Part shown: positions 44,091 to 63,660 of the stretch, piece after piece
Layout: every line of letters begins with the position of its first letter
Numbering within the stretch: position 1 is the first letter of the stretch
DNA from: Crocinitomicaceae bacterium
Lineage (GTDB): Bacteria > Bacteroidota > Bacteroidia > Flavobacteriales_G > Salibacteraceae
Reading direction: 5' to 3'
Length of the DNA stretch: 64,000 bases
Assembly: GCA_002713215.1 (NCBI GenBank)
Contig: PAVO01000007.1
Span: 308,443 to 372,442 of the forward strand
Position numbers and translations under genes: made by a program
Notes under the pieces: model-generated
What the model saw: only the letters and a program-made list of their open reading frames with translations
Database searches by the model: none
Told to the model about the DNA's origin: nothing

Positions 44091-44177
44091 TGGTAGCCGC
44101 CCCGGGACTCGAACCCGGATGATCATTGCGATCGGGAGATTTTAAATCTCCTGTGTATACCATTCCACCAGACGGCC
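44091..44177 (-). tRNA. tRNA-Leu(UAA)
   Basis: Class II body with long variable arm; anticodon loop TTTAAAA; CCA encoded. Last gene of the left array. Confidence 0.93.
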
Positions 44178-44188
44178 GAAGTAATTTT

Positions 44189-44264
44189 TGGAGCGACTAG
44201 CGGGGGTCGAACCCGCGACCTCGACGTTGGCAACGTCGCGCTCTACCAGCTGAGCTATAGTCGC
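44189..44264 (-). tRNA. tRNA-Gly(GCC)
   Basis: Complete cloverleaf, loop TTGCCAA, CCA encoded. Confidence 0.95.
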
Positions 44265-44290
44265 ATTTAATTGGTACATCCTACTGAAAG

Positions 44291-44368
44291 TGGCGCACGT
44301 GAAAGGATTCGAACCTTTGACCTCCGGTTTCGTAGACCAGCGCTCTATCCAACTGAGCTACACATGCG
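44291..44368 (-). tRNA. tRNA-Arg(ACG)
   Basis: Loop CTACGAA; A34 would be inosine, reading CGU/CGC/CGA. CCA encoded. Confidence 0.93.
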
Positions 44369-44377
44369 AAATAAAAT

Positions 44378-44453
44378 TGGAGCGACCAGCGGGGGTTGAA
44401 CCCACGACCTCAACGTTGGCAACGTCGCGCTCTACCAGCTGAGCTATGGCCGC
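44378..44453 (-). tRNA. tRNA-Gly(GCC), second copy
   Basis: Near-duplicate of the 44189 gene with a few changes in the stems; CCA encoded. Confidence 0.93.
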
Positions 44454-44458
44454 AAAAA

Positions 44459-44626
44459 CTATAAGCAAGAAAGCCGTTGTCTGATCTCCGTCTTTGCTTT
44501 CATTCGTGCTGAAGTCTTATTTGGTTGGGCTATATCTTCCCACCAGCCAGCGATGTTCTTTCCATGATCTTTTACTCGGTGCTTTCCACCAGGTAAAACG
44601 ATTTTCTTTCTTCCCATAGGCTGCAT
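44459..44626 (-). CDS. Small basic protein inside the tRNA array
   Basis: 55 residues, starting at an ATG with AAGGAG seven bases upstream, a strong ribosome site rare within tRNA operons. Sequence is basic with a GWWED centre (KNIAGWWEDIAQP). It lies between tRNA-Ser(CGA) and tRNA-Gly(GCC) on the same strand and so is co-transcribed with tRNAs. Function unknown. Confidence 0.65.
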   Translation of the reverse strand: MQPMGRKKIVLPGGKHRVKDHGKNIAGWWEDIAQPNKTSARMKAKTEIRQRLSCL

Positions 44627-44647
44627 AATCTGCTCCTTGATTGAATT

Positions 44648-44741
44648 TGGCGAAGAGGGAGGGATTTGAACCCCCGGAGCGACCAAGGTCGCCCAGTGAC
44701 TTTCGAGGACACCGCAATAAACCAGACTCTGCCACCTCTCC
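44648..44741 (-). tRNA. tRNA-Ser(CGA)
   Basis: Class II; loop CTCGAAA. The anticodon stem has one T-T mismatch, so it may be weakened. CCA encoded. Confidence 0.82.
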
Positions 44742-44757
44742 AGAACACCACTATAAT

Positions 44758-44775
44758 AACATCATATTTGATGTT
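44758..44775. promoter_or_regulatory. Palindrome between tRNA genes
   Basis: AACATCATATTTGATGTT, a fully symmetrical variant of the recurrent AACAAC motif, between two tRNA-Ser genes. Confidence 0.5.
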
Positions 44776-44782
44776 AGATAAT

Positions 44783-44876
44783 TGGCGGAGACGAAGGGAT
44801 TTGAACCCTTGGAAGGCTTTGACACCTTCTACGCCTTAGCAGGGCGCTGCAATCAACCAGACTCTGCCACGTCTCC
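44783..44876 (-). tRNA. tRNA-Ser(GCU)
   Basis: Class II; loop CTGCTAA; CCA encoded. Confidence 0.93.
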
Positions 44877-44900
44877 ATAAACCATAATGAATGTTAAATT

Positions 44901-44985
<85 letters not shown>

Positions 44986-45009
44986 ATCATAAAACACCCA
45001 TTTTTTAAT

Positions 45010-45102
45010 TGGCGGTGAGCCAGAGATTCGAACTCTGGGAGGACCGACAAAAGCCCTCGACGGTTTTCAAAACCGCTGCCTTAACCACTCAGCCAGCTCA
45101 CC
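45010..45102 (-). tRNA. tRNA-Ser(UGA)
   Basis: Class II; loop TTTGAAA; CCA encoded. Confidence 0.94.
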
Positions 45103-45145
45103 AATTCACTTAGCAAAAAACACTATATAAGTGCGCTTTGGTAAG

Positions 45146-45237
45146 TGGAGGAAGTGGTGGGATTTGAACCCACGGAAGGCCGCAAAACCTCCTACGCCTT
45201 AGCAGGGCGCTGCCTTCATCCACTCGGCCACACTTCC
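45146..45237 (-). tRNA. tRNA-Ser(GCU), second copy
   Basis: Class II; loop CTGCTAA; CCA encoded. Diverged from the 44783 copy. Confidence 0.92.
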
Positions 45238-45255
45238 ATTAATCACTACATCATT

Positions 45256-45274
45256 GGGCGATAGCGCCCTTTTT
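45256..45274 (+). terminator. Rightward terminator inside the leftward tRNA array
   Basis: GGGCG-ATAG-CGCCC followed by TTTTTG on the + strand; the reverse strand lacks a T run. It would stop antisense transcription. Confidence 0.6.
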
Positions 45275-45277
45275 GTT

Positions 45278-45364
45278 TGGTACGAAAGGAGAGACTTGAA
45301 CTCTCACGGGTATTACCCCACCGGAACCTAAATCCGGCGCGTCTACCAATTTCGCCACTCTCGC
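45278..45364 (-). tRNA. tRNA-Leu(UAG), second copy
   Basis: Class II; loop TTTAGGT; CCA encoded. Confidence 0.94.
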
Positions 45365-45426
45365 ATTTAACTTTCCCACTTGCTGTTTCATGAGCTTTCC
45401 GCTTGCGTTCCAGCCTATGAATTAAT

Positions 45427-45512
45427 TGGCGGAAGATAACTGAATCGAACAGTCACGCATCTCTGCGCGGCACGAGTTTCAAACCCGCTTTGCAACCTCA
45501 GCGCTATCTTCC
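45427..45512 (-). tRNA. Atypical class II tRNA, anticodon UGA
   Basis: Long variable arm, loop TTTGAAA. The acceptor can extend to 8 bp (GGAAGATA with TATCTTCC) with a 4-bp T stem, as in tRNA-Sec or serine-type allo-tRNAs; the D stem is short. Most simply an odd tRNA-Ser(UGA). Confidence 0.7.
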
Positions 45513-45518
45513 ATAAGG

Positions 45519-45608
45519 TGGCGGAAAAGATCGGATTCGAACCGATGGACGCATTACTGCGCCTACACGCTTCCAACGTGCTGCCTTCGACCGCTCGGCC
45601 ACTTTTCC
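45519..45608 (-). tRNA. tRNA-Ser(GGA)
   Basis: Class II; loop TTGGAAG; CCA encoded. Confidence 0.94.
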
Positions 45609-45625
45609 GGTATTCTCAATGTGCA

Positions 45626-45706
45626 TGGGGGTGACCGACGGGTTTTTTGAACCCACGTAGTCTCGACTCACAATCGAGGACATAACCACTCTGTCATGCT
45701 CACCCC
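45626..45706 (-). tRNA. tRNA-His(GUG)
   Basis: Loop TTGTGAG; C73 opposite an extra 5' G fits the His identity. The T loop is A-rich (TTCAAAAAA) and the T stem imperfect, so it may be degenerating. Confidence 0.8.
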
Positions 45707-45721
45707 TTTAAATACGGGATT

Positions 45722-45808
45722 TGGTGCGGATGGTGGGAGTCGAACCCACACGGGCGTTTCGCCCACAGCGCTCTCAACACTGCATGTCTACCATTCCATC
45801 ACATCCGC
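45722..45808 (-). tRNA. tRNA-Leu(GAG)
   Basis: Class II; loop TTGAGAG; CCA encoded. Confidence 0.93.
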
Positions 45809-45817
45809 GTCGTAAGT

Positions 45818-45896
45818 TGGCACGCCCGGAGGGACTCGAACCCATCAATCGTCCCGTTAGAAGCGGGATGCCTTAATCCAATTTGGCCACGAGCGC
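45818..45896 (-). tRNA. tRNA-Arg(UCU)
   Basis: Loop CTTCTAA; acceptor has several G-T pairs; CCA encoded. Confidence 0.9.
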
Positions 45897-45909
45897 ACAG
45901 TAAAATGTT

Positions 45910-45986
45910 TGGCACGCCAGGAAGGGCTCGAACCTTCAACCTTCGGATCCGAAGTCCGACGCTCTATCCAATTGAGCTACTAGCGC
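45910..45986 (-). tRNA. tRNA-Arg(UCG)
   Basis: Loop CTTCGGA; CCA encoded. A UCG anticodon for Arg is uncommon in enterics or vibrios. Confidence 0.9.
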
Positions 45987-46000
45987 ACTAATTGTTGATA

Positions 46001-46076
46001 TGGTGCCGGCAAAAGGACTTGAACCCTCAACCTTCTGATTACAAAACAGCTGCTCTACCAATTGAGCTACGCCGGC
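46001..46076 (-). tRNA. tRNA-Thr(UGU)
   Basis: Loop TTTGTAA; CCA encoded. Confidence 0.93.
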
Positions 46077-46127
46077 ATTAAATTGTTTTATTTCAATGTT
46101 AGCTATCAACGTGCTAAACAAAGAAAA

Positions 46128-46212
46128 TGGTACCCAAGGCCGGACTTGAACCGGCACGCCTATTGGGACTGAGATCTGAACTCAGCATGTCTTCCAATTC
46201 CATCACTTGGGT
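46128..46212 (-). tRNA. tRNA-Leu(CAG)
   Basis: Class II; loop TTCAGAT; CCA encoded. First tRNA of the left operon, 40 bp after the second leader terminator. Confidence 0.94.
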
Positions 46213-46252
46213 AGTGTTTGGATGTACCAATTTGTTAAAGAACGATGGGCAT

Positions 46253-46280
46253 AAAAAAACCCGGGTTTGACCCCAGGTTT
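46253..46280 (-). terminator. Second leader terminator, left tRNA operon
   Basis: Reverse strand: AACCTGGG pairs with CCCGGGTT, then seven T. It lies between leader ORF B and the first tRNA, the position of an attenuator. Confidence 0.9.
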
Positions 46281-46300
46281 CTTACATCGTATTGATGTCA

Positions 46301-46329
46301 GTATCCCGAAGGTCTCGCCTTCGGAATAC
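46301..46329 (-). ncRNA. Leader hairpin after ORF B
   Basis: A 12-bp stem (GTATTCCGAAGG with CCTTCGGGATAC) starting 12 nt after the ORF B stop. A small CATC-GATG hairpin (46285-46297) follows before the terminator. Confidence 0.8.
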
Positions 46330-46341
46330 GAAAGCGAATGG

Positions 46342-46458
46342 TTAACTTGTTAGTGACAGAGATGTGCCTAATGACAGGCGTAATGAGCCACCACGTCTGC
46401 TACTATGGCGTAGCAACGAGCTTGTTAAGCTATGTGATGTGCGATTACGTTGTGTCAT
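46342..46458 (-). CDS. Leader peptide B of left tRNA operon
   Basis: 38 codons (42 if the in-frame ATG at 46470 is used). 35 of 38 residues are Leu, Ser, Arg, Gly, His or Thr, exactly the amino acids of the 18 tRNAs that follow. Codons are varied (TTA, TTG, CTA, CTG; TCA, TCG, TCT, AGC, AGT; CGT, CGC, AGA; GGT, GGC; CAT; ACA), so nearly every isoacceptor of the array is sampled. The ribosome site is weak (GAATGAG-like). Stop, stable hairpin and terminator follow in order. Read as a sensing leader; a stable peptide product is not expected. Confidence 0.72.
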   Translation of the reverse strand: MTQRNRTSHSLTSSLLRHSSRRGGSLRLSLGTSLSLTS

Positions 46459-46494
46459 TTTCATTCTCATTCTGTAAATCAAATCGTTAAAAAC

Positions 46495-46526
46495 AAAAAA
46501 CCCCGAAAGTTTTCACTTCCGAGGTT
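46495..46526 (-). terminator. First leader terminator, left tRNA operon
   Basis: Reverse strand: AACCTCGGAAG pairs with CTTTCGGGGTT, then a T run. Its 5' arm can instead pair with the 3' arm of the preceding hairpin. Confidence 0.9.
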
Positions 46527-46548
46527 CTTATGCAACTTTATCGTTGCT

Positions 46549-46568
46549 CCGGAAGCCATAGCTTCCGG
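46549..46568 (-). ncRNA. Leader hairpin after ORF A
   Basis: CCGGAAGC pairs with GCTTCCGG, 11 nt after the ORF A stop. The distal arm GCTTCCGGAG is also complementary, with one bulge, to the terminator arm CCTCGGAAG, giving a possible antiterminator. Confidence 0.78.
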
Positions 46569-46579
46569 ATAGATGGAAA

Positions 46580-46657
46580 CTATGCAGCGACTACACGTAG
46601 GCCTGAGCGCGAAAGGCCCAAACTTCTACTCGTTAAATGTGTGGTCGAATGTAACAT
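46580..46657 (-). CDS. Leader peptide A of left tRNA operon
   Basis: 25 codons from an ATG with GGAG nine bases upstream. 20 of 25 residues are Leu, Ser, Arg, Gly, His or Thr; exceptions are the initiator Met and a final Val-Val-Ala-Ala. Codons include TTA, TTG, CTT, CTA, TCG, TCA, AGT, AGA, CGC, CGT, GGC, CAT, ACA, ACC, ACG. It lies ~60 bp after a strong promoter and is followed by a hairpin and a terminator, the layout of an amino-acid-operon leader. Confidence 0.75.
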   Translation of the reverse strand: MLHSTTHLTSRSLGLSRSGLRVVAA

Positions 46658-46714
46658 TGTTTCTATCTCCAAAATGGTTTGATGCAAACGTCTTGTTTGC
46701 GTTAAGTGATGAGA

Positions 46715-46743
46715 AGTATATACAGCATTATTTTTTCTTGCAA
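46715..46743 (-). promoter_or_regulatory. Promoter of left tRNA operon
   Basis: Reverse strand TTGCAA, 17-bp spacer, TATACT. Drives leader ORF A and everything to 44091; divergent from rnr. Confidence 0.82.
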
Positions 46744-57985: not shown

Positions 57986-58066
57986 TGGTGCCCCCCGGGG
58001 GAATTGAACCCTGACCATCTCGACGGTTATGAGCCGTGCGCTTTGAAACCACTAAGCTAGAGGGGC
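57986..58066 (-). tRNA. tRNA with anticodon CAU (Ile2 or elongator Met)
   Basis: Loop CTCATAA, A73. The body resembles tRNA-Ile2, in which lysidine would read AUA. AUA codons occur in both right-hand leaders, in favour of Ile. CCA encoded. Confidence 0.85.
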
Positions 58067-58069
58067 GTT

Positions 58070-58145
58070 TGGAGCAGCATGCCGGGGTCGAACCGACGAC
58101 ATCGACTTGGAAGGACGAGGTTTTACCAATTGAAACTAATGCTGC
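58070..58145 (-). tRNA. tRNA-Gly(UCC)
   Basis: Loop CTTCCAA; one T-T mismatch in the anticodon stem. CCA encoded. Glycine anticodon differs from the GCC type of the left array. Confidence 0.85.
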
Positions 58146-58167
58146 TTTGAATGAATAGAATTTGCTT

Positions 58168-59015
58168 CGGTTGAGATTACACCTAAGCATGGTTGTCTTT
58201 TGCTGGGCGTACGTTCCGCTTGCGACGAAACTTACCCGCTTATCCACATGCACCAAGCATGTAACAACCATCCCCGCCTTTTTATAGAGGTGGCACTTCC
58301 TCTGACGCTAGTAGGATTTCGACACTTTTGCATACCGTCAACCATGCTCTGGCTATAAATCGGGGCTACCCGAACCGTGCTGCTACTTTTATCGACCACG
58401 TCTGACCTTGCGAGTCTTCAGTGGACCTCATTCAACCTAAGTTGTGAGGCATTAGGAGACTTTCCCTACTTCGCCGACACCCACTTTTGCATTTTATTTG
58501 GCTTGCGGAGCCGGGATTGAACCAGCGACCTTCAGTTCCTCATACTGACGCTCTACGACTGAGCTATCTGCAAAAACTCACCAAGACGCGGGGTGTCAGG
58601 TCATACATGCCCTTTTGAAGCACATAATGGACCACGCCTTGCATTAACACGTTCACAGCGCCAACCGTTACTTGTGTCTCGATATCTTGAGCTTGTGCCC
58701 AGCGACACTAACCCTTGATACCGTGTGAAACGCCGTCTTCGCTAAAATCCGACTAAATCACGACGACCTTTGACCCGACTTTATTCCAGATTGCACGTCT
58801 ATTCATGGTTGCACCCATGAAAGATTTCATTCCAGCGTTGCCCAAATGAAACCTTATCGACTCCGGCGTTCCAGCCCTCCAGCGATCAAGAATCACTGGC
58901 CACCGACAGGTGGGTCTCGTCTGCATAGTAACTCCCTCGAAAGGAAGCGGGCGGTTGTGAGAACCATCCCTTCCACTCGGTTACCCGAATGTCCTCGGCT
59001 ATGCCCAAAAATCGT
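58168..59015 (-). ncRNA. GOLLD-like large structured RNA, copy 1
   Basis: About 848 nt aligning along its whole length with copy 2 (59140-59981), both carrying a tRNA-like domain at the same internal position. Stems covary between copies: CATTCG-GGTAAC-CGAGTG here against CATCTA-GGTAAC-TAGATG (GTAA loop kept), and ACATGC-TTGGT-GCATGT against ACGCACC-TGG-GGTGCGT. No conserved protein frame. Length, internal tRNA, tetraloops and tRNA-array setting fit GOLLD, a large RNA known from phages and lake or marine bacteria. The class name is from memory. Confidence 0.72.
58499..58573 (-). tRNA. tRNA-like domain inside structured RNA copy 1
   Basis: Cloverleaf with acceptor TTGCAGA/TCCGCAA (one A-C mismatch). 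Anticodon position reads GAG (Leu) on a class I body, unlike any real tRNA-Leu; the same acceptor is used in copy 2. Possibly structural only. Confidence 0.55.
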
Positions 59016-59033
59016 AATGCCTAAGCACACTGT

Positions 59034-59105
59034 TGTGACAACAGGGTTCGAACCTGTGACCTACCCCGTATGAAGGGGTCGCTCTACCAACTGAGCTATG
59101 TCACA
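59034..59105 (-). tRNA. tRNA-Met(CAU)
   Basis: Acceptor TGTGACA/TGTCACA perfect, loop TTCATAC, A73. CCA not encoded. Lies between the two structured RNA copies. Confidence 0.82.
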
Positions 59106-59139
59106 ACACTATGCTCAAAACATTGAGATAGTGCGTTCA

Positions 59140-59981
59140 GGTTGAGATTACACCTTCACTTGGTTGTCTTTCGTTGGGCGTACACTGCGCTTGCGACGCG
59201 TTTACCCGCTTATCCACGCACCCCAGGTGCGTAACAACCATCCCCGCCTAGTTTAAAGAGGTGGCATTACCTCTGTCGCGTAATGGGATTTCGACGCTTT
59301 TGCATACTGCCGACCTTGCGAGCCGTTAATCGGGGCTAACCGAAACATGCAGCTACTTACATCAACCAGTTCCAACCTTGCGAGTCTTCACTGAACCTTA
59401 TTCAGCCTAAGCTGTAAGGCGTTAGGGGACTTCCCCCATTACACCGGCACCCACTTTTGCATTTTAGTTGCGGAGCAGGAATTGAACCTGCGGCCAATTG
59501 ATTAAAAGTCAATCGCTCTACCAGCTGAGCTATCTGCAAACTCACCAAGATGTGGGGTACCGGTCCCTACATGCTCTTTTGAAGCACATAATAAAACACA
59601 CCTTGCAATTAACATTTTCACAGCGCTAACCGTTACTTATGTCTCGATACTTTGATCATGTGCCTTTCAACACTAACCCATAGCACCGTGCGAACTGCCC
59701 TTTTCGCTAGAATCGGACTAATCTCGCAAAGATCTTTGGCCTAACTGTCTTCCAGTATGCACTCCTATCAACGATTGCAGCCGTTGAAACCACCACCCCA
59801 GTGTTACCCAGGCTTTAGTTTTCGGAACTGGCGTACCAGCCTTCCGGCAATCAGGAACTGCCGGCCACCTCACGGTGGGCCTCATCTGCATAGAAACTCC
59901 CCCGAAAGGAAGCGGGAGGTTGTGAGAAACCATTCCCTTCCATCTAGTTACCTAGATGTCTTCGGCTATGCCCGTAAAACT
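59140..59981 (-). ncRNA. GOLLD-like large structured RNA, copy 2
   Basis: About 842 nt, homologous to copy 1 along its length with compensatory changes in stems (59941-59958 and 59216-59232). The 3' part (59140-59460) is the better conserved, the 5' part more variable, and a tRNA-like domain lies between, as described for GOLLD. The intervening spacer holds tRNA-Met. Confidence 0.72.
59468..59539 (-). tRNA. tRNA-Lys(UUU)-like domain inside structured RNA copy 2
   Basis: Loop CTTTTAA on the same TTGCAGA/TCCGCAA acceptor as copy 1. No CCA encoded. May be a functional embedded tRNA-Lys or a structural domain. Confidence 0.6.
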
Positions 59982-60158
59982 GTTGCACTTCTACAATTCG
60001 GACGAAGGTGGCGGAGTCGAACCGCGTCCCGCCGTCGCCACCAGATTCTGTGCATATCCTCTGGCTTAAACAACGGATTACCCTTACCACCACTTACTTG
60101 GCCCTGAGCCTGATGCACCAGGTGACAAGGTTGCAAAGGGCACCCTCGATAAAACTAT

Positions 60159-60234
60159 TGGTGGAGCCTGCCGGCATCGAACCGGCGACCTTCGAAATGC
60201 CATTCCGACGCTCTCCCATCTGAGCTAAGGCCCC
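60159..60234 (-). tRNA. tRNA-Ala(GGC)
   Basis: Loop ATGGCAT; CCA encoded. Confidence 0.9.
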
Positions 60235-60235
60235 A

Positions 60236-60427
60236 TGGCTGTCACAAGAGGACTCGAACCTCTAACCGCACATTCAAATTCGCTTCAGCTTTTGTGCAGC
60301 TCTACCGCCTAATCAGTACACACCATTCGTACACTTAACACTTTTAGTTCCAGTCAAATATCACAACCTGCCCGGGCTCTCACCGCGCTGCTTGTTAGCA
60401 ATAGCTTCAGCGAATGTTACTGTGACA
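60236..60427 (-). ncRNA. Interrupted tRNA-like element, 192 nt
   Basis: 5' TGTCACA pairs with 3' TGTGACA (followed by G73 and CCA), and the T arm AGAGG-TTCGAGT-CCTCT is normal, but about 115 nt separate the acceptor from the T arm. An internal pairing ATTCGC/GCGAAT plus AGCT/AGCT joins the halves. A normal D arm and anticodon arm are not found; a 20-nt loop closes a GCACA/TGTGC stem. Could be a tRNA with an insert or a tmRNA-like fold without a recognisable tag. Confidence 0.45.
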
Positions 60428-60500
60428 CCATCATGGTGTTATTACGTGCGTTCTCTGTCTGGTTCACCCTTTCGTTTGAGCATTATGTGACAACAAACAC

Positions 60501-60576
60501 TGGTGGAGATAGGCGGGCTCGAACCGCCGACCGGATACTTGCAAAGCATCTGCTCTCCCAACTGAGCTATATCCCC
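60501..60576 (-). tRNA. tRNA-Ala(UGC)
   Basis: Loop TTTGCAA; CCA encoded. Confidence 0.94.
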
Positions 60577-60700
60577 GAAATTTCTGGTGCAGGGCAAAGT
60601 CATCAACTTACTGTGAGTGCGATCCCCAGTGATATCCACACTATCGATATAGCCGAACAGAAATCACCTTTGACACCCTATCCCTGCATTGAAAACACAT

Positions 60701-60777
60701 TGGCTGGGGGAGAAGGATTCGAACCTTCGATCACGGAGTCAGAGTCCGTAGCCTTAACCTGACTTGGCTATCCCCCA
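60701..60777 (-). tRNA. tRNA-Gln(CUG)
   Basis: U1-A72, G73, loop CTCTGAC; CCA encoded. Confidence 0.92.
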
Positions 60778-60811
60778 CCGATGTATTCTCAGTGTTGCTT
60801 GTAGAATAAAG

Positions 60812-60883
60812 CGAACGACGACTGGGAGTTCAACCCATGACTTCAGGAGACCTGACGTGTTGTCGTTACACCATACGCCGCTC
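60812..60883 (-). pseudogene. Degenerate tRNA remnant
   Basis: Acceptor-like GAGCGGC/GTCGTTC, a GTGT-ACAC D arm and a T-loop-like TTGAACT remain, but no 7-nt anticodon loop and no CCA. Reads as a decayed tRNA. Confidence 0.5.
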
Positions 60884-60898
60884 ATTCATTCTTAAAAT

Positions 60899-60975
60899 TG
60901 GCGGAGCTGACCGGGATCGAACCGGCGACCTCTTGCGTGACAGGCAAGCATTCTAACCGTCTGAACTACAGCTCC
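60899..60975 (-). tRNA. tRNA-Asp(GUC)
   Basis: Loop CTGTCAC; CCA encoded. Confidence 0.95.
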
Positions 60976-60982
60976 AAATTGT

Positions 60983-61059
60983 TGGCGGGAATGACCGGGA
61001 TCGAACCGGCGACCTCCTGCGTGACAGACAGGCATTCTAACCATCTGAACTACATCCCC
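60983..61059 (-). tRNA. tRNA-Asp(GUC), second copy
   Basis: Same loop, diverged acceptor (GGGGATG/CATTCCC); CCA encoded. Confidence 0.94.
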
Positions 61060-61137
61060 ACAGTGTAAACCTTTGCCCAATTGCTGAGCCCTGACAGCGT
61101 CACCTGACAGGTTGTGATCCGAGAATACGAACTCACA

Positions 61138-61320
61138 CTAACTCTGAAGCTCATTACTCAATAATTTATCGAGCTTCCATGGAAGACTAGGGCTTCCCTC
61201 GTCTCTGGCGACATTGTGCGATTGCCAGGCCATCATTAATTCCAACTCTATCGCTTGAATAATTCCACGTAACAGCAGAAGTTCTTCGCGACTGTTTGTT
61301 TCACCCTCACGCTCTCGCAT
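61138..61320 (-). CDS. Small protein within the tRNA array, start uncertain
   Basis: 60 residues from the ATG at 61320, with no ribosome site there. The frame stays open upstream for ~30 more codons with plausible protein sequence (VVYVVVKRGIAFEFK) but no usual start. A perfect AGGAGG six bases before an ATG at 61391 opens a different frame that ends after seven codons. Possibly a frameshifted gene. Helical C-terminal half. Confidence 0.45.
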   Translation of the reverse strand: MREREGETNSREELLLLRGIIQAIELELMMAWQSHNVARDEGSPSLPWKLDKLLSNELQS

Positions 61321-61422
61321 GGTTAAGTGAATCGTTTTTCCAGCGTTTTCAGTTTTAAACTCGAACGCTATTCCACGTTTAACGACGACATAAACAACCT
61401 CCTGTTCGTCAGTCCATACAAT

Positions 61423-61500
61423 TGGAAGGGGCAGAAGGATTTGAACCTTCGCATACGGGAGTCAAAGTCCCGGGCCTTAACCTGACTTGGCTATACCCCT
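61423..61500 (-). tRNA. tRNA-Gln(UUG)
   Basis: Loop CTTTGAC; A1-U72; U at 73 is unusual for Gln. CCA encoded. Confidence 0.88.
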
Positions 61501-61507
61501 ATCAACT

Positions 61508-61583
61508 TGGCGGATCGTGCTGGTCTCGAACCAGCGACCTCGACATTAACAGTGTCTCGCTCTACCAACTGAGCTAACGATCC
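61508..61583 (-). tRNA. tRNA-Asn(GUU)
   Basis: Class I; loop CTGTTAA; G73; CCA encoded. Confidence 0.93.
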
Positions 61584-61693
61584 AAATTCTGAAGCCAAAT
61601 TTCTCGCCTACTCACTGTGCAGCTCCATACACAGACCCGTAGGAAACAAAGTTAAACATTGCGCAATGCTCACTTTCCGGGCGACGTTTACGG

Positions 61694-61785
61694 TGGCGGA
61701 CAAAGTTGGATTTGAACCAACGGTGGGGCTTTCGCCTCGGCAGGTTAACAGCCTGCTGCCTTCGACCATACTCGGCCATCTGTCC
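61694..61785 (-). tRNA. Class II serine-type tRNA with anticodon GUU
   Basis: Stem GCAGG/CCTGC closes loop CTGTTAA, so the anticodon is GUU (Asn codons), but the body is class II with a long variable arm, G73 and a GGCCGAG D arm like tRNA-Ser. A normal tRNA-Asn lies next to it. Confidence 0.75.
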
Positions 61786-61794
61786 ATAATTCCG

Positions 61795-61932
61795 CTATGC
61801 TGCCTGTGGCAGCTCCTGTGTGCCAAAAAACACATCCATCGTTGGGTGACCTACCGCCAAGGCGATGTCGTTCAATGCTTCTTCTATCTTGTCCAGATAG
61901 TGCATTACCAATCGGTATTTTTCTGCGTCCAT
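61795..61932 (-). CDS. 45-residue protein within the tRNA array
   Basis: ATG preceded by GGAGAGTGTC. Helical, with KYRLVMHYLDKIEEALNDI as the probable core; ends in ELPQAA. Located between tRNA-Val and the class II GUU tRNA. Function unknown. Confidence 0.6.
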   Translation of the reverse strand: MDAEKYRLVMHYLDKIEEALNDIALAVGHPTMDVFFGTQELPQAA

Positions 61933-61949
61933 GACACTCTCCAAATTGT

Positions 61950-62026
61950 TGGTACTGGCTATTGGAATCGAACCAATGACATCCGCTGTGTAAGAACGGC
62001 GCTCTACCAATCTGAGCTAAGCCAGC
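61950..62026 (-). tRNA. tRNA-Val(UAC)
   Basis: Loop CTTACAC; CCA encoded. Confidence 0.92.
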
Positions 62027-62037
62027 ACTGTTTAAAG

Positions 62038-62115
62038 TGGTCGGGAATGAAGGATTTGAACCTTCGACCTCTTGGTCCCAAACCAAGCGCTGCTACCAAA
62101 CTGAGCTAATTCCCG
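62038..62115 (-). tRNA. tRNA-Pro(UGG)
   Basis: Loop TTTGGGA; CCA encoded. Confidence 0.94.
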
Positions 62116-62116
62116 T

Positions 62117-62193
62117 TGGTCGGTGATGAAGGATTTGAACCTTCGACTTTTCGGCCCCAAACCGAACACTCTACCAGACTGAGCTAATCACCG
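62117..62193 (-). tRNA. tRNA-Pro(UGG), second copy
   Basis: Loop TTTGGGG; two bases from its neighbour; CCA encoded. Confidence 0.94.
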
Positions 62194-62202
62194 ATTTAAA
62201 CC

Positions 62203-62368
62203 TGTATTCGACATGACGCCTTAAGAGTTCATGCTGCTTAGGCGCCAACCTATTTGGCGAGAGACCCAGTTCTCGCATCCCCAGGGGCCTCACTATCATC
62301 GCGAGGCATTTTCCCCGGCGCATGTTCTTGGCTCGGGATCTATCACTCAAGCGTCATGCGAATACAGA
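62203..62368 (-). ncRNA. Structured RNA closed by a long stem, between Pro and Glu tRNAs
   Basis: CTGTATTCGCATGACGC at one end pairs with GCGTCATG-T-CGAATACAG at the other (17 pairs, one bulge), closing ~130 nt that hold further hairpins (GCCTC/GAGGC; GCGAGA/TCTCGC). No convincing ORF. Unrecognised; could be a spacer RNA or new structured RNA. Confidence 0.6.
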
Positions 62369-62404
62369 CTTTCAAATTCTCCAACCTAAGTTGGTTGCGG
62401 GTGC

Positions 62405-62480
62405 TGGTACTGCCAGCGGGACTCGAACCCGCGTTGCCGACGTGAAAGGCCGGTGTCCTAACCAACTAGACGATGGCAGC
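62405..62480 (-). tRNA. tRNA-Glu(UUC)
   Basis: Loop CTTTCAC; CCA encoded. Confidence 0.94.
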
Positions 62481-62519
62481 ACTGATGTTATCTTCGCGTT
62501 TAAATGCGCCCATTATTCT

Positions 62520-62596
62520 TGGTACCGCCAGCGGGGTTCGAACCCGCATTCCAAGGGTGAAACCAAGGCGTCCTAGTCCAATTAGACGATGGCGGT
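62520..62596 (-). tRNA. tRNA-Glu(UUC)-like with broken anticodon stem
   Basis: Acceptor ACCGCCA/TGGCGGT and T arm are perfect and TTC sits in the anticodon position, but the two strands of the anticodon stem are both CCTTG-like and cannot pair. CCA encoded. Probably defective. Confidence 0.65.
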
Positions 62597-62641
62597 ATAT
62601 AAGTTTTCTCATTCAACAAAACAACTTAAATATTGTTGTTT

Positions 62642-62719
62642 TGGTCGAGGCGGGGGGATTCGAACCCCCGACCAATTGGTTAAAAGCCAACTGCTCTAAA
62701 ACCGCTGAGCTACGCCCCG
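62642..62719 (-). tRNA. tRNA-Lys(UUU)
   Basis: Loop CTTTTAA; CCA encoded. Confidence 0.94.
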
Positions 62720-62743
62720 AACACATTGTTTTCCCACTGTTTG

Positions 62744-62819
62744 TGGTGGGTGCAGAGGGTTTCGAACCCCCGACCAGATAGTTAAAAGCTACCTGCTCTA
62801 CCAACTGAGCTATGCACCC
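62744..62819 (-). tRNA. tRNA-Lys(UUU), second copy
   Basis: Loop CTTTTAA; acceptor GGGTGCA/TGCACCC; CCA encoded. Confidence 0.94.
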
Positions 62820-62884
62820 TCTCGACACTTCCAGACTTTTGTCTGAGGCGACTTTCAGGCCGCCTTTGGGTCACGTATTACGTG

Positions 62885-62968
62885 TTACTTACCCAAGTTC
62901 GTCTTTCGTGCCACTGTGTGGTAGAAGACATGTCGAGAACGATGTGCTCGTCTTAAATTGCGTCGCAT
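62885..62968 (-). CDS. 27-residue basic peptide within the tRNA array
   Basis: ATG with AAGGAG six bases upstream, an excellent ribosome site. Seven of 27 residues are Arg and four His; it starts MRRNLRRAHRSRH. It lies between tRNA-Ile(GAU) and tRNA-Lys and is followed by two small hairpins without T runs. May be another regulatory short ORF or a real micropeptide. Confidence 0.6.
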   Translation of the reverse strand: MRRNLRRAHRSRHVFYHTVARKTNLGK

Positions 62969-62991
62969 AACTGCTCCTTTCGCATTCAATT

Positions 62992-63067
62992 TGGTACAGC
63001 TGACTGGCATCGAACCAGTGACCTCTCCCTTATCAGGGGAGCGCTCTGCCAACTGAGCTACAGCTGT
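62992..63067 (-). tRNA. tRNA-Ile(GAU)
   Basis: Loop CTGATAA; CCA encoded. First tRNA of the right operon, 22 bp after the second leader terminator. Confidence 0.95.
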
Positions 63068-63089: not shown

Positions 63090-63123
63090 AAAAAACCCCG
63101 GGTTCCTAGTGGCTCCCGGGGTT
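63090..63123 (-). terminator. Second leader terminator, right tRNA operon
   Basis: Reverse strand: AACCCCGGG pairs with CCCGGGGTT, then TTTTAT. Sits between leader 2 and the first tRNA. Confidence 0.92.
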
Positions 63124-63144
63124 CGGATGATAATATCCTGTTTC

Positions 63145-63168
63145 CGGAGGCCGTTTGATAAGCCTCCG
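63145..63168 (-). ncRNA. Leader hairpin after right ORF 2
   Basis: CGGAGGC pairs with GCCTCCG, 13 nt after the ORF 2 stop. A small GGAT-ATCC hairpin (63125-63138) follows before the terminator, as in the left operon. Confidence 0.78.
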
Positions 63169-63181
63169 TATGTAGGTAGAC

Positions 63182-63295
63182 TTATCTGGTCAAAGGCTCT
63201 TGTTGATCGTGTTTCTTAGGCACAATATTCCCCTCGACGCTTGGCATTATTGCCGCATCATTTGGTTTTATTGTGTTAAGAATGACAGTGTTCAT
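63182..63295 (-). CDS. Leader peptide 2 of right tRNA operon
   Basis: 37 codons from an ATG with AAGG ~8 bases upstream. 29 of 37 residues are Ile, Met, Gly, Lys, Ala, Gln, Asp, Asn, Val, Pro or Glu, the amino acids of the tRNAs that follow. Contains AUA twice and GGG, codons served by the CAU and UCC tRNAs of this operon. Stop, hairpin and terminator follow. Confidence 0.7.
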   Translation of the reverse strand: MNTVILNTIKPNDAAIMPSVEGNIVPKKHDQQEPLTR

Positions 63296-63354: not shown

Positions 63355-63384
63355 AAAAAAGCCGGCGGTTTTACCCTCCGGCTT
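63355..63384 (-). terminator. First leader terminator, right tRNA operon
   Basis: Reverse strand: AAGCCGGAGG pairs with CCGCCGGCTT, then T run. Its 5' arm CGGAGG is complementary to CCTCCG at 63406-63411 upstream, a possible antiterminator. Confidence 0.92.
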
Positions 63385-63411
63385 ATGCAATTTTACTTGC
63401 TCTGTCGGAGG

Positions 63412-63439
63412 ACCAGCCCCCAACAAATTGGAAACTGGT
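63412..63439 (-). ncRNA. Leader hairpin after right ORF 1
   Basis: ACCAG pairs with CTGGT, with an inner CCAA/TTGG stem, starting at the ORF 1 stop codon. Confidence 0.72.
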
Positions 63440-63561
63440 TAAACTGTAGTTGCTTTACCCATGATCGGATCAGCATTGTCTTGTGCAACACTTTGCACAG
63501 ATACAGGTTGTGCAATCCCTTCGGGTTGCTTAGCAATTTGTATCTCGACGTTGCGTTTCAT
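63439..63561 (-). CDS. Leader peptide 1 of right tRNA operon
   Basis: 40 codons. 35 of 40 residues belong to Ile, Met, Gly, Lys, Ala, Gln, Asp, Asn, Val, Pro, Glu; no Leu or His and only two Ser and one Arg, the reverse of the left leaders. Codons include AUA, GGG, all three of CCC/CCT/CCG, GAA/GAG and GAC/GAT. GAGAG precedes the ATG by seven bases. About 65 nt downstream of a strong promoter. Confidence 0.75.
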   Translation of the reverse strand: MKRNVEIQIAKQPEGIAQPVSVQSVAQDNADPIMGKATTV

Positions 63562-63632: not shown

Positions 63633-63660
63633 ATTATACATAAGAAAAAACGACCTGCAA
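63633..63660 (-). promoter_or_regulatory. Promoter of right tRNA operon
   Basis: Reverse strand TTGCAG, 16-bp spacer, consensus TATAAT, then GGGCT. The GC-rich discriminator is typical of stable-RNA promoters under stringent control. Confidence 0.85.

What the first reader, a model, noticed from the sequence alone, without database searches (positions are those of the whole stretch)
46212..46743. Left tRNA operon starts with two leader ORFs built from the amino acids of its own tRNAs
Seen: promoter (TTGCAA-17-TATACT), ORF A (25 codons), hairpin, terminator, ORF B (38 codons), hairpin, terminator, then 18 tRNAs for Leu, Ser, Arg, Gly, His and Thr only. Those six amino acids make 20/25 and 35/38 residues of the two peptides, and the codons sample nearly every isoacceptor present. 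Known: amino-acid operons (trp, his, leu) use leaders rich in the regulated amino acid with 1:2/2:3/3:4 hairpins. Inference: leader translation senses supply or charging of the encoded tRNAs and decides terminator read-through, a feedback loop for tRNA genes. I know of no described equivalent.
Basis: partly seen in the sequence, partly recalled or inferred. Interest (0 to 1): 0.95.

Follow-up and report, generated by a model that had tools for sequence, protein, structure and literature searches.

The report
tRNA operons that sense tRNA shortage
On this likely megaplasmid and on several known ones, clusters of tRNA genes begin with one or two tiny reading frames rich in the amino acids that the cluster's own tRNAs carry, followed by RNA hairpins predicted to let transcription through when a ribosome stalls on the tiny frame, so the plasmid would likely make more tRNA when a tRNA runs short.

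Summary
ORFs A and B (20/24 and 35/37 residues after Met) use the amino acids of their own array (Leu, Ser, Arg, Gly, His, Thr). The window's second tRNA array also starts with two leaders (C 34/39, D 30/36) made of its own set. None of the four contains Phe, Tyr, Trp or Cys; a third array in the same genome (contig C9, composition like C7) carries Trp, Tyr, Phe and Cys tRNAs only, behind a leader MFQRVCFNCYWYWFTS. Pseudomonas and Vibrio megaplasmids repeat the design. With nine leader/array families, the true pairing is the best of 362,880 permutations.

The window's four modules each carry five alternating pairing regions (1:2 and 3:4 against 2:3 and 4:5, the terminator). Region 1 lies at or just after the stop codon. 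Folding predicts that a ribosome stalled 5 or more codons before the stop leaves the terminator disarmed, while one at the stop arms it. Matching residues avoid the last four codons (38/84, against 80/84 for codons -5 to -8), as this predicts.

Best reading: ribosome-mediated attenuation of tRNA operons, read-through on shortage of any encoded tRNA. No expression data exist here. Ten full-text searches listed no description. New variant of a known kind.

The parts
46715..46743 (-). candidate promoter of the left tRNA operon (TTGCAA-17-TATACT)
   Evidence: such sites not above chance frequency
46580..46657 (-). leader ORF A, MLHSTTHLTSRSLGLSRSGLRVVAA
46575..46584 (-). module A region 1 (CATAGTTTCC, includes the UAG stop); pairs with region 2 at 46557-46566
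46548..46569 (-). module A hairpin 2:3
46532..46547 (-). module A small hairpin, tip of the proposed antiterminator
46494..46526 (-). module A terminator (4:5); region 4 = 46516-46523 pairs with region 3 = 46547-46555
46342..46458 (-). leader ORF B, MTQRNRTSHSLTSSLLRHSSRRGGSLRLSLGTSLSLTS
46301..46336 (-). module B region 1 (46329-46336) and hairpin 2:3 (46301-46329)
46285..46297 (-). module B small hairpin
46253..46280 (-). module B terminator
46227..46243 (-). boxA-like GTTCTTTAACAAATTGG between terminator B and the first tRNA (boxA consensus recalled)
   Evidence: sequence
44091..46212 (-). left tRNA array: 16 by ARAGORN (Leu, Ser, Arg, Gly, Thr) plus His and Ser by eye
63633..63660 (-). candidate promoter of the right operon (TTGCAG-16-TATAAT)
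   Evidence: read from the sequence; not scanned against chance
63439..63561 (-). leader ORF C, MKRNVEIQIAKQPEGIAQPVSVQSVAQDNADPIMGKATTV
63401..63438 (-). module C region 1 (63428-63438) and hairpin 2:3 (63401-63427)
63355..63384 (-). module C terminator; small hairpin at 63387-63400 before it
63182..63295 (-). leader ORF D, MNTVILNTIKPNDAAIMPSVEGNIVPKKHDQQEPLTR
63145..63186 (-). module D region 1 (63178-63186, overlaps the stop codon) and hairpin 2:3 (63145-63168)
63090..63123 (-). module D terminator; small hairpin at 63125-63138 before it
57986..63067 (-). right tRNA array, 21 by ARAGORN (Ile, Lys, Glu, Pro, Val, Asn, Gln, Asp, Ala, Met, Gly, Leu and one with anticodon tca) with two GOLLD RNAs inside

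Best explanation
The four leader modules in the window are predicted to be ribosome-mediated transcription attenuators that would control the tRNA genes behind them: a ribosome that finishes the leader likely sits on the stop codon, masks region 1, lets hairpin 2:3 and then the terminator form, and stops transcription, whereas a ribosome held up for lack of any one of the encoded tRNAs would leave region 1 free, so that 1:2 and the antiterminator 3:4 would form and the tRNA genes would be transcribed. Shown directly: the ORFs, their amino acid match to the array behind them, the alternating complementary regions, the terminator sequences, and the same layout on other megaplasmids. Predicted: the folding states as a function of ribosome position. 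Inferred: that the leaders are translated, that stalling follows tRNA shortage (low tRNA or low charging), that each leader acts as an OR over its amino acids, and that tandem leaders tighten the off state. Proposed function: a demand-driven supply of tRNAs, one regulated operon per amino acid group, together covering all 20 amino acids on this element.
For: Composition: nine leader/array families, true pairing 1 of 362,880 permutations, own leader best for its array 9 of 9; rule-chosen ORFs in eight families 1 of 40,320. F/Y/W/C absent from A-D and from the tRNAs called in both window arrays; third array on contig C9 with leader MFQRVCFNCYWYWFTS: ARAGORN W,Y,F,C,C,F,Y, and two further Rfam matches with Trp and Phe anticodons by eye; 0 of 3,625 sORFs as rich in F/Y/W/C. 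C9 has C7's tetranucleotide profile (0.068; C7's own windows mean 0.066; 25 kb of other contigs 0.255). R-rich leaders of the P. silesiensis Glu/Asp array predicted Arg tRNAs beyond the fetched end; two are there. Structure: over 10 modules against shuffled arms, 1:2 Fisher p 3.6e-7 and 3:4 p 8.3e-10. Ribosome-position folding: terminator arm sequestered 0.59/0.71/0.66/0.57 with a stall at codon -6 and 0.00/0.01/0.00/0.21 at the stop for A/B/C/D; 0, 0, 2, 0 of 100 shuffles do as well; 19 of 21 modules go the same way. Position: in-set residues 38/84 in codons -1 to -4, 80/84 in -5 to -8, 77/84 in -9 to -12; the predicted switch lies between codon -5 and the stop in A-D. One double-sided change each in 1:2 and 3:4 among four homologous modules (28 of 500 shuffles reach the total). 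Reading frame kept in four diverged Pseudomonas leaders, 20-25 of 24-27 residues in set.
Against: No expression, ribosome or term-seq data. Four modules show no switch in the equilibrium model: sil_SMP -0.09 and Vp_LSY1 -0.07, Vp_LSY2 0.73/0.73 at 25 C, C9 0.78/0.75. In full transcripts the folded minimum keeps the terminator in all four window modules, so the model needs co-transcriptional timing. Module C's 1:2 is not significant in the automatic test (p 0.36; the routine took another hairpin), though it is the strongest by-hand duplex (-16.4). Untranslated leaders are predicted on in the window. In-set fractions are modest for the Arg/Asp/Glu leader (0.48), the Pro/Gln/Trp leader (0.29) and C9 (0.60). 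Codon-level matching is weak: C 27/34 decodable, 27.8 expected; D 23/30, 23.8 expected. 7 of 27 arrays of at least five tRNAs lack a rule-found module (one of them, L058, has two). SDs of B and C are weak.
Confidence: 0.8

Rival explanations
1. A narrower form of the best explanation: the attenuators work as described but the natural signal is amino acid starvation (charging), as in amino acid operons, and the tRNA genes are raised as part of a starvation answer rather than to replace missing tRNA. (Overlaps with the best explanation, so the odds do not add up to one.)
For: A stalled ribosome cannot tell an uncharged from an absent tRNA; the layout is that of amino acid attenuators.
Against: More uncharged tRNA would not cure starvation (reasoning); leaders mix up to 13 unrelated amino acids, and the first genes behind the window's leaders are tRNAs, 40 and 22 nt after the last terminator.
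Confidence: 0.3
2. Opposite sign: translation of the leader to the end favours read-through, so tRNAs are made when supply is good.
For: The sign rests on folding predictions only; four modules show no switch.
Against: 19 of 21 modules sequester the terminator arm more with the ribosome upstream than at the stop; in-set residues avoid the last four codons, which fits a stall that must leave region 1 free.
Confidence: 0.1
3. The peptides act in trans, or as a sink for the encoded tRNAs, and the hairpins are ordinary processing structures or constitutive terminators.
For: A leader peptide with a trans role is known (peTrpL; start of the abstract of PMC7298713 seen).
Against: Peptide sequences diverge while amino acid set and 1:2/3:4 complementarity stay; in both window arrays the whole ORF-hairpin-terminator unit is repeated.
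Confidence: 0.05
4. Chance or composition bias: short ORFs near terminators look rich in a few amino acids.
For: Leaders are short and some sets are large (12-13 amino acids); 16 and 40 of 2,856 sORFs reach C's and D's fractions.
Against: Permutation 1 of 362,880; 2 and 0 of 2,856 sORFs match A and B; no rule-found leader in 8 tRNA clusters of 6 phages or 8 clusters on five other plasmid records.
Confidence: 0.01

Closest known systems
Ribosome-mediated transcription attenuators of amino acid operons (trp, his, leu, thr, ilv; the multi-amino-acid ilv and thr leaders are nearest; all recalled)
   Same: Short leader ORF rich in control codons, mutually exclusive hairpins, intrinsic terminator before the operon.
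   Different: Controls tRNA genes; leader spells 3 to 13 amino acids matched to the tRNAs behind it; region 1 is at or after the stop codon instead of within the control codons; untranslated leader predicted on in the window; modules in tandem in several arrays.
T-box leaders (recalled)
   Same: Sense tRNA state and decide between terminator and antiterminator.
   Different: T-boxes need no leader ORF; the window matches no T-box or amino acid leader family in Rfam at gathering score.
tRNA-rich megaplasmids and chromids (pMPPla107, pBASL58, pAMCP48-600, pMP7017)
   Same: Carry many tRNAs; passages read on pMPPla107 (PMC4105467), pAMCP48-600 (PMC5217437) and pMP7017 (PMC10832533) count or discuss them.
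   Different: Searching these main texts for 'leader' (PMC5217437: 'leader peptide') and 'attenuat' gave no occurrence.

Membership tests
Ribosome-mediated transcription attenuator | Short ORF with ribosome binding site ahead of the operon | tested here: met
   A has GGAG; B, C and D have weaker SDs
Ribosome-mediated transcription attenuator | Leader rich in codons for the amino acids linked to the operon's product | tested here: met
   at amino acid level, weak at codon level
Ribosome-mediated transcription attenuator | Mutually exclusive hairpins linking ORF end to terminator | tested here: met
   in silico only:
Ribosome-mediated transcription attenuator | Intrinsic terminator between leader and first gene | tested here: met
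   predicted:
Ribosome-mediated transcription attenuator | Ribosome stalling changes read-through | not testable with these tools
   needs an experiment
Amino acid operon attenuator (trp/his type) | Controls amino acid biosynthesis genes | tested here: not met
   tRNA genes follow the leaders
Amino acid operon attenuator (trp/his type) | Untranslated leader terminates (recalled) | tested here: not met
   predicted only: terminator arm sequestered without ribosome 0.57-0.70 in A-D; other modules 0.12-0.84
Rfam leader and T-box families | Match at gathering score | tested here: not met
   window scan listed only tRNA and GOLLD

The most novel reading that the evidence does not exclude
Megaplasmids carry a complete demand-driven tRNA homeostat: all 20 amino acids are divided among a few tRNA operons, and each operon is switched on by ribosomes that fail to finish a short peptide written in the amino acids of that operon's own tRNAs. 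It would be the first known feedback control in which tRNA genes are regulated by translation of codons that those tRNAs read, and it would let the plasmid answer tRNA loss of any cause, including tRNA-cutting toxins and defences.
Probability: 0.7. Interest if true: 0.96.

Novelty: new variant of a known kind. Interest (0 to 1): 0.93.

Why it matters
How cells match tRNA supply to codon demand, one species at a time, is a long-standing question; tRNA genes are usually discussed as growth-rate controlled (recalled). Here the sequence itself names the sensed tRNAs, so the idea can be tested codon by codon with a reporter. It also gives tRNA-rich megaplasmids a reason to carry tRNAs that the chromosome already has, and a way to find new cases: search upstream of tRNA arrays for a peptide that spells the array.

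Tried and rejected
Phage origin of the contig: gyrA/gyrB-like genes, ligA, RNase R and tRNAs first suggested a jumbo phage. One terminase family (PF03237) and PHROG 9 (function not given by the call) had no match in the genome; other capsid and terminase families were not tried. TraG is 55% identical over 99% to Alteromonas pAMCP48-600, so megaplasmid is the better reading; the contig's ends do not overlap. Viral contig scans with RNase R and with an AsnB-like protein found no relative. GOLLD as a route to relatives: 1 of 35 family genomes, the window's own. TraG in 60 relative genomes: only the own genome. SD:region 1 pairing as a further state is weak (Fisher p 0.028) and not claimed. Codon-level matching beyond amino acid level is weak. 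Arrays without a leader by the rule: L023 (5 tRNAs), L048, L051 (11 tRNAs), L058, L060, L065, L070; clusters under five tRNAs in L025, L046, L047, L049, L054, L061, L066 also gave none. Rows dropped before counts: Methylibium L059 (leader found by rule, but its array holds all 20 amino acids) and Alteromonas L050 (8/38 in set for a Gln-Ile pair, array extent unclear) from the composition tests; Vv_NKE, Methylibium and Vp_LSY2 from the 21-module folding count. Vp_PQW and Vp_LSY2 were first found by eye; PQW is also found by the ATG/GTG rule, LSY2 is not. The position profile uses 21 modules, homologues included, without C9.

The C9 leader was found by looking upstream of that cluster after the missing amino acids had been noted (note); four overlapping ORF starts were listed and I took the ATG one, so its discovery is not a formal test. 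In one search the P. silesiensis set was taken as E,D,R before the Arg tRNAs were seen; one search used E,D.

Full report
What is there. On the minus strand, upstream of the left tRNA array (44091-46212), two short ORFs lie in series: A at 46657-46580 and B at 46458-46342. Each is followed, 10 and 12 nt after its stop, by a strong hairpin, then a small hairpin and an intrinsic-type terminator. ARAGORN finds 16 tRNAs in the array; a His and a further Ser tRNA are visible by eye. After Met, 20 of 24 and 35 of 37 residues belong to L,S,R,G,H,T.

The second array has it too. The right array (57986-63067, 21 tRNAs by ARAGORN, two GOLLD RNAs inside) starts with ORF C (63561-63439) and ORF D (63295-63182), each again followed, 11 and 13 nt after the stop, by hairpin, small hairpin and terminator. 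34 of 39 and 30 of 36 residues belong to its set I,K,E,P,V,N,Q,D,A,M,L,G. Among 2,856 sORFs of contig C7, 2, 0, 16 and 40 reach the fractions of A, B, C and D.

The missing four amino acids. None of the 136 residues of A-D after Met is Phe, Tyr, Trp or Cys, and no such tRNA is called in either array. A genome-wide tRNA search pointed to contig C9, where ARAGORN calls Trp-Tyr-Phe-Cys-Cys-Phe-Tyr behind the leader MFQRVCFNCYWYWFTS, with hairpins and terminator. Two further Rfam matches there, one cut off by the contig end, have Trp and Phe anticodons by eye. 9 of 15 leader residues are in set and 0 of 3,625 sORFs are as rich in F/Y/W/C. C9 is 0.068 from C7 in tetranucleotide distance (C7's own 34-kb windows: mean 0.066, maximum 0.108) and 0.255 from 25 kb of other contigs; 10 of 29 C9 ORFs match (E 1e-5) the 96 kb of pAMCP48-600 examined, most of them in the 20 kb beside that plasmid's own Cys-Trp-Phe-Tyr array. 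So C7 and C9 are likely one megaplasmid whose three arrays together cover 20 amino acids.

The same layout elsewhere. A distant DNA search with the left leader against plasmids gave two weak hits; one (E 0.5) covered only terminator A and lay in pBASL58 (Pseudomonas sp. Leaf58, 904 kb), before a tRNA array Arg-Asp-Glu-Glu-Asp-Glu-Arg with leader MNTFAQERFAERRDDRDDRTCAFV. Following that lead: pBASL58 array S,S,M,S,P,P,L,S,T, leader MNMPSMPSSLTMTLPSPMA; array Y,I,A,W,N,K,N,F,T,C,K,V,Q,H..., leader MNAHHFNQQITKQAKNYFAGWCVSVR. Homologous trios occur in pMPPla107, Pseudomonas sp. FeN3W and P. silesiensis pPL1. Vibrio megaplasmids have other sets: leader MFITTFTTVKIEKCDAMFNAIAADICCAKKMNVDNKIEITT (40 of 40 in set), leaders MLHSYLHLSYLSLYN (13 of 14) and MSYLSHLHYSLSYSLLST (16 of 17) before a Leu/Ser/Tyr/His array, and a leader with a QQPWQQ core (6 of 21 in set) before a Pro/Gln/Trp array.

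Statistics of the match. With one representative per family, eight leader sets against eight arrays: true pairing 1 of 40,320. With ORFs chosen by rule only (ATG or GTG, SD, terminator 12-110 nt after the stop, last four residues left out): 1 of 40,320, both pooled and best-candidate. With C9 added: 1 of 362,880, and own leader best for its array 9 of 9; own fractions 0.90, 0.85, 0.48, 0.89, 0.92, 1.00, 0.94, 0.29, 0.60. A rule-found candidate exists for 20 of 27 arrays of at least five tRNAs. Comparison sets: 0 of 8 tRNA clusters in 6 phages; 0 of 8 clusters on five other plasmid records, four Gram-positive and one labelled P. fluorescens with only 191 nt upstream (ATG rule); and in 17 of the 19 non-C7 host loci, 19 clusters, mostly single tRNAs and some with little upstream sequence, gave one ORF, seen in two overlapping loci, with 0 of 17 residues in set. 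P. silesiensis leaders rich in Arg stood before an array that seemed to lack Arg; fetching more DNA showed two tRNA-Arg genes.

Architecture. Region 1 (around or just after the stop codon) is complementary to region 2, the 5' arm or loop of the strong hairpin; region 3, its 3' arm, is complementary to region 4, the 5' arm of the terminator. In the window each 1:2 self-duplex beats the cross-module duplexes of its row and column; for 3:4 this is not so (A's region 3 pairs better with D's region 4, for example). Against shuffled arms, over 10 modules of eight families, 1:2 gives Fisher p 3.6e-7 and 3:4 p 8.3e-10; for A, B, C, D the single values are 0.002, 0.020, 0.359, 0.012 (1:2) and 0.022, 0.007, 0.027, 0.020 (3:4). 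Two of the 24 modules gave no result (Vp_LSY2 no terminator by the routine, Methylibium no hairpin). In four homologous Ser/Met/Pro modules 1:2 plus 3:4 keeps 98.4% of cells paired with two double-sided changes (28 of 500 shuffles reach that); the 2:3 plus 4:5 state 95.3% with one (123 of 500).

Ribosome position. Folding the nascent RNA up to the terminator's 5' arm, with the ribosome covering 13 nt from the A site (footprint recalled), gives for A, B, C, D a sequestered terminator arm of 0.59, 0.71, 0.66, 0.57 with a stall at codon -6 and 0.00, 0.01, 0.00, 0.21 at the stop; 0, 0, 2 and 0 of 100 shuffles do as well. Over 21 modules the mean difference is +0.30 (shuffles +0.03), 19 positive, Fisher p 2.8e-7, homologues not being independent. 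In A-D the change falls between codon -5 and the stop. Independently, in-set residues make up 38/84 of codons -1 to -4, 80/84 of -5 to -8, 77/84 of -9 to -12, 67/82 of -13 to -16 and 83/120 of -17 to -24 (21 modules): matching codons lie where a stall would leave region 1 free. Modules without a switch in this model: sil_SMP, Vp_LSY1, Vp_LSY2 (25 C), C9.

Mechanism and limits. The best reading is attenuation with 'leader not finished' as the on signal, sensing any of the encoded tRNAs. That the leaders are translated is inferred. In full transcripts of the window modules the folded minimum keeps the terminator, so timing matters. Untranslated leaders are predicted on in the window's modules, unlike trp (recalled). 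Whether lack of tRNA or lack of charging is the natural signal is open; lack of tRNA makes more sense for a tRNA gene. Codon-level matching is only modest: 17 of 18 left-array tRNAs have a readable codon, but C and D show no codon preference beyond expectation.

Literature. Ten full-text searches of an open-access library (listed rows and starts of abstracts seen, several lists capped at 10-20 rows of up to 640 papers) listed no paper on leader peptides or attenuators of tRNA operons. In PMC10832533, PMC4105467, PMC8628078 and PMC5217437 I read passages only: they report plasmid tRNAs, and 'leader' (in PMC5217437 'leader peptide') and 'attenuat' do not occur in the main texts held. Most subscription papers and preprints are not in that library.

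Noticed in passing
window 62520-62596 (-): tRNA called SeC (tca) has a 77-nt body that resembles the neighbouring tRNA-Glu by eye; not a normal tRNA-Sec, possibly a UGA-reading tRNA.
   Followed up: no
window 58168-58640 and 59139-59604 (-): Two GOLLD RNAs inside the right tRNA array, each overlapping a tRNA (Leu-gag 58499-58573, Lys-ttt 59467-59539).
   Followed up: partly
window 46227-46243 (-); L059, about 55 nt before the first tRNA: boxA-like CTTTAACAA between the leader terminator and the tRNAs, in the window and in Methylibium, which may mark Nus-type antitermination of the array.
   Followed up: no
contig C7: Carries gyrA- and gyrB-like genes, ligA, RNase R (a second RNB gene lies on C18) and a RecN-like protein. 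In pAMCP48-600 a ligA (50% identical) and an RNase R-like ORF (27%) lie about 3-7 kb from a Gln-Ile tRNA pair with a leader-like ORF.
   Followed up: partly
G000 contig C9, 32656-34115 (L114): Third tRNA array (Trp, Tyr, Phe, Cys), cut off by the contig end, with its own leader at C9:32210-32260.
   Followed up: yes
L063, L068 (Vibrio): Repeating Pro-Gln-Trp tRNA triplets (PQWPQWPQWPQ and PQWPQWPQ by ARAGORN) suggest copy number change by recombination.
   Followed up: no
window 60230-60460 and 59990-60080 (-): Stretches in the right array that by eye resemble interrupted or unusual tRNA or structured RNA genes not called by ARAGORN.
   Followed up: no
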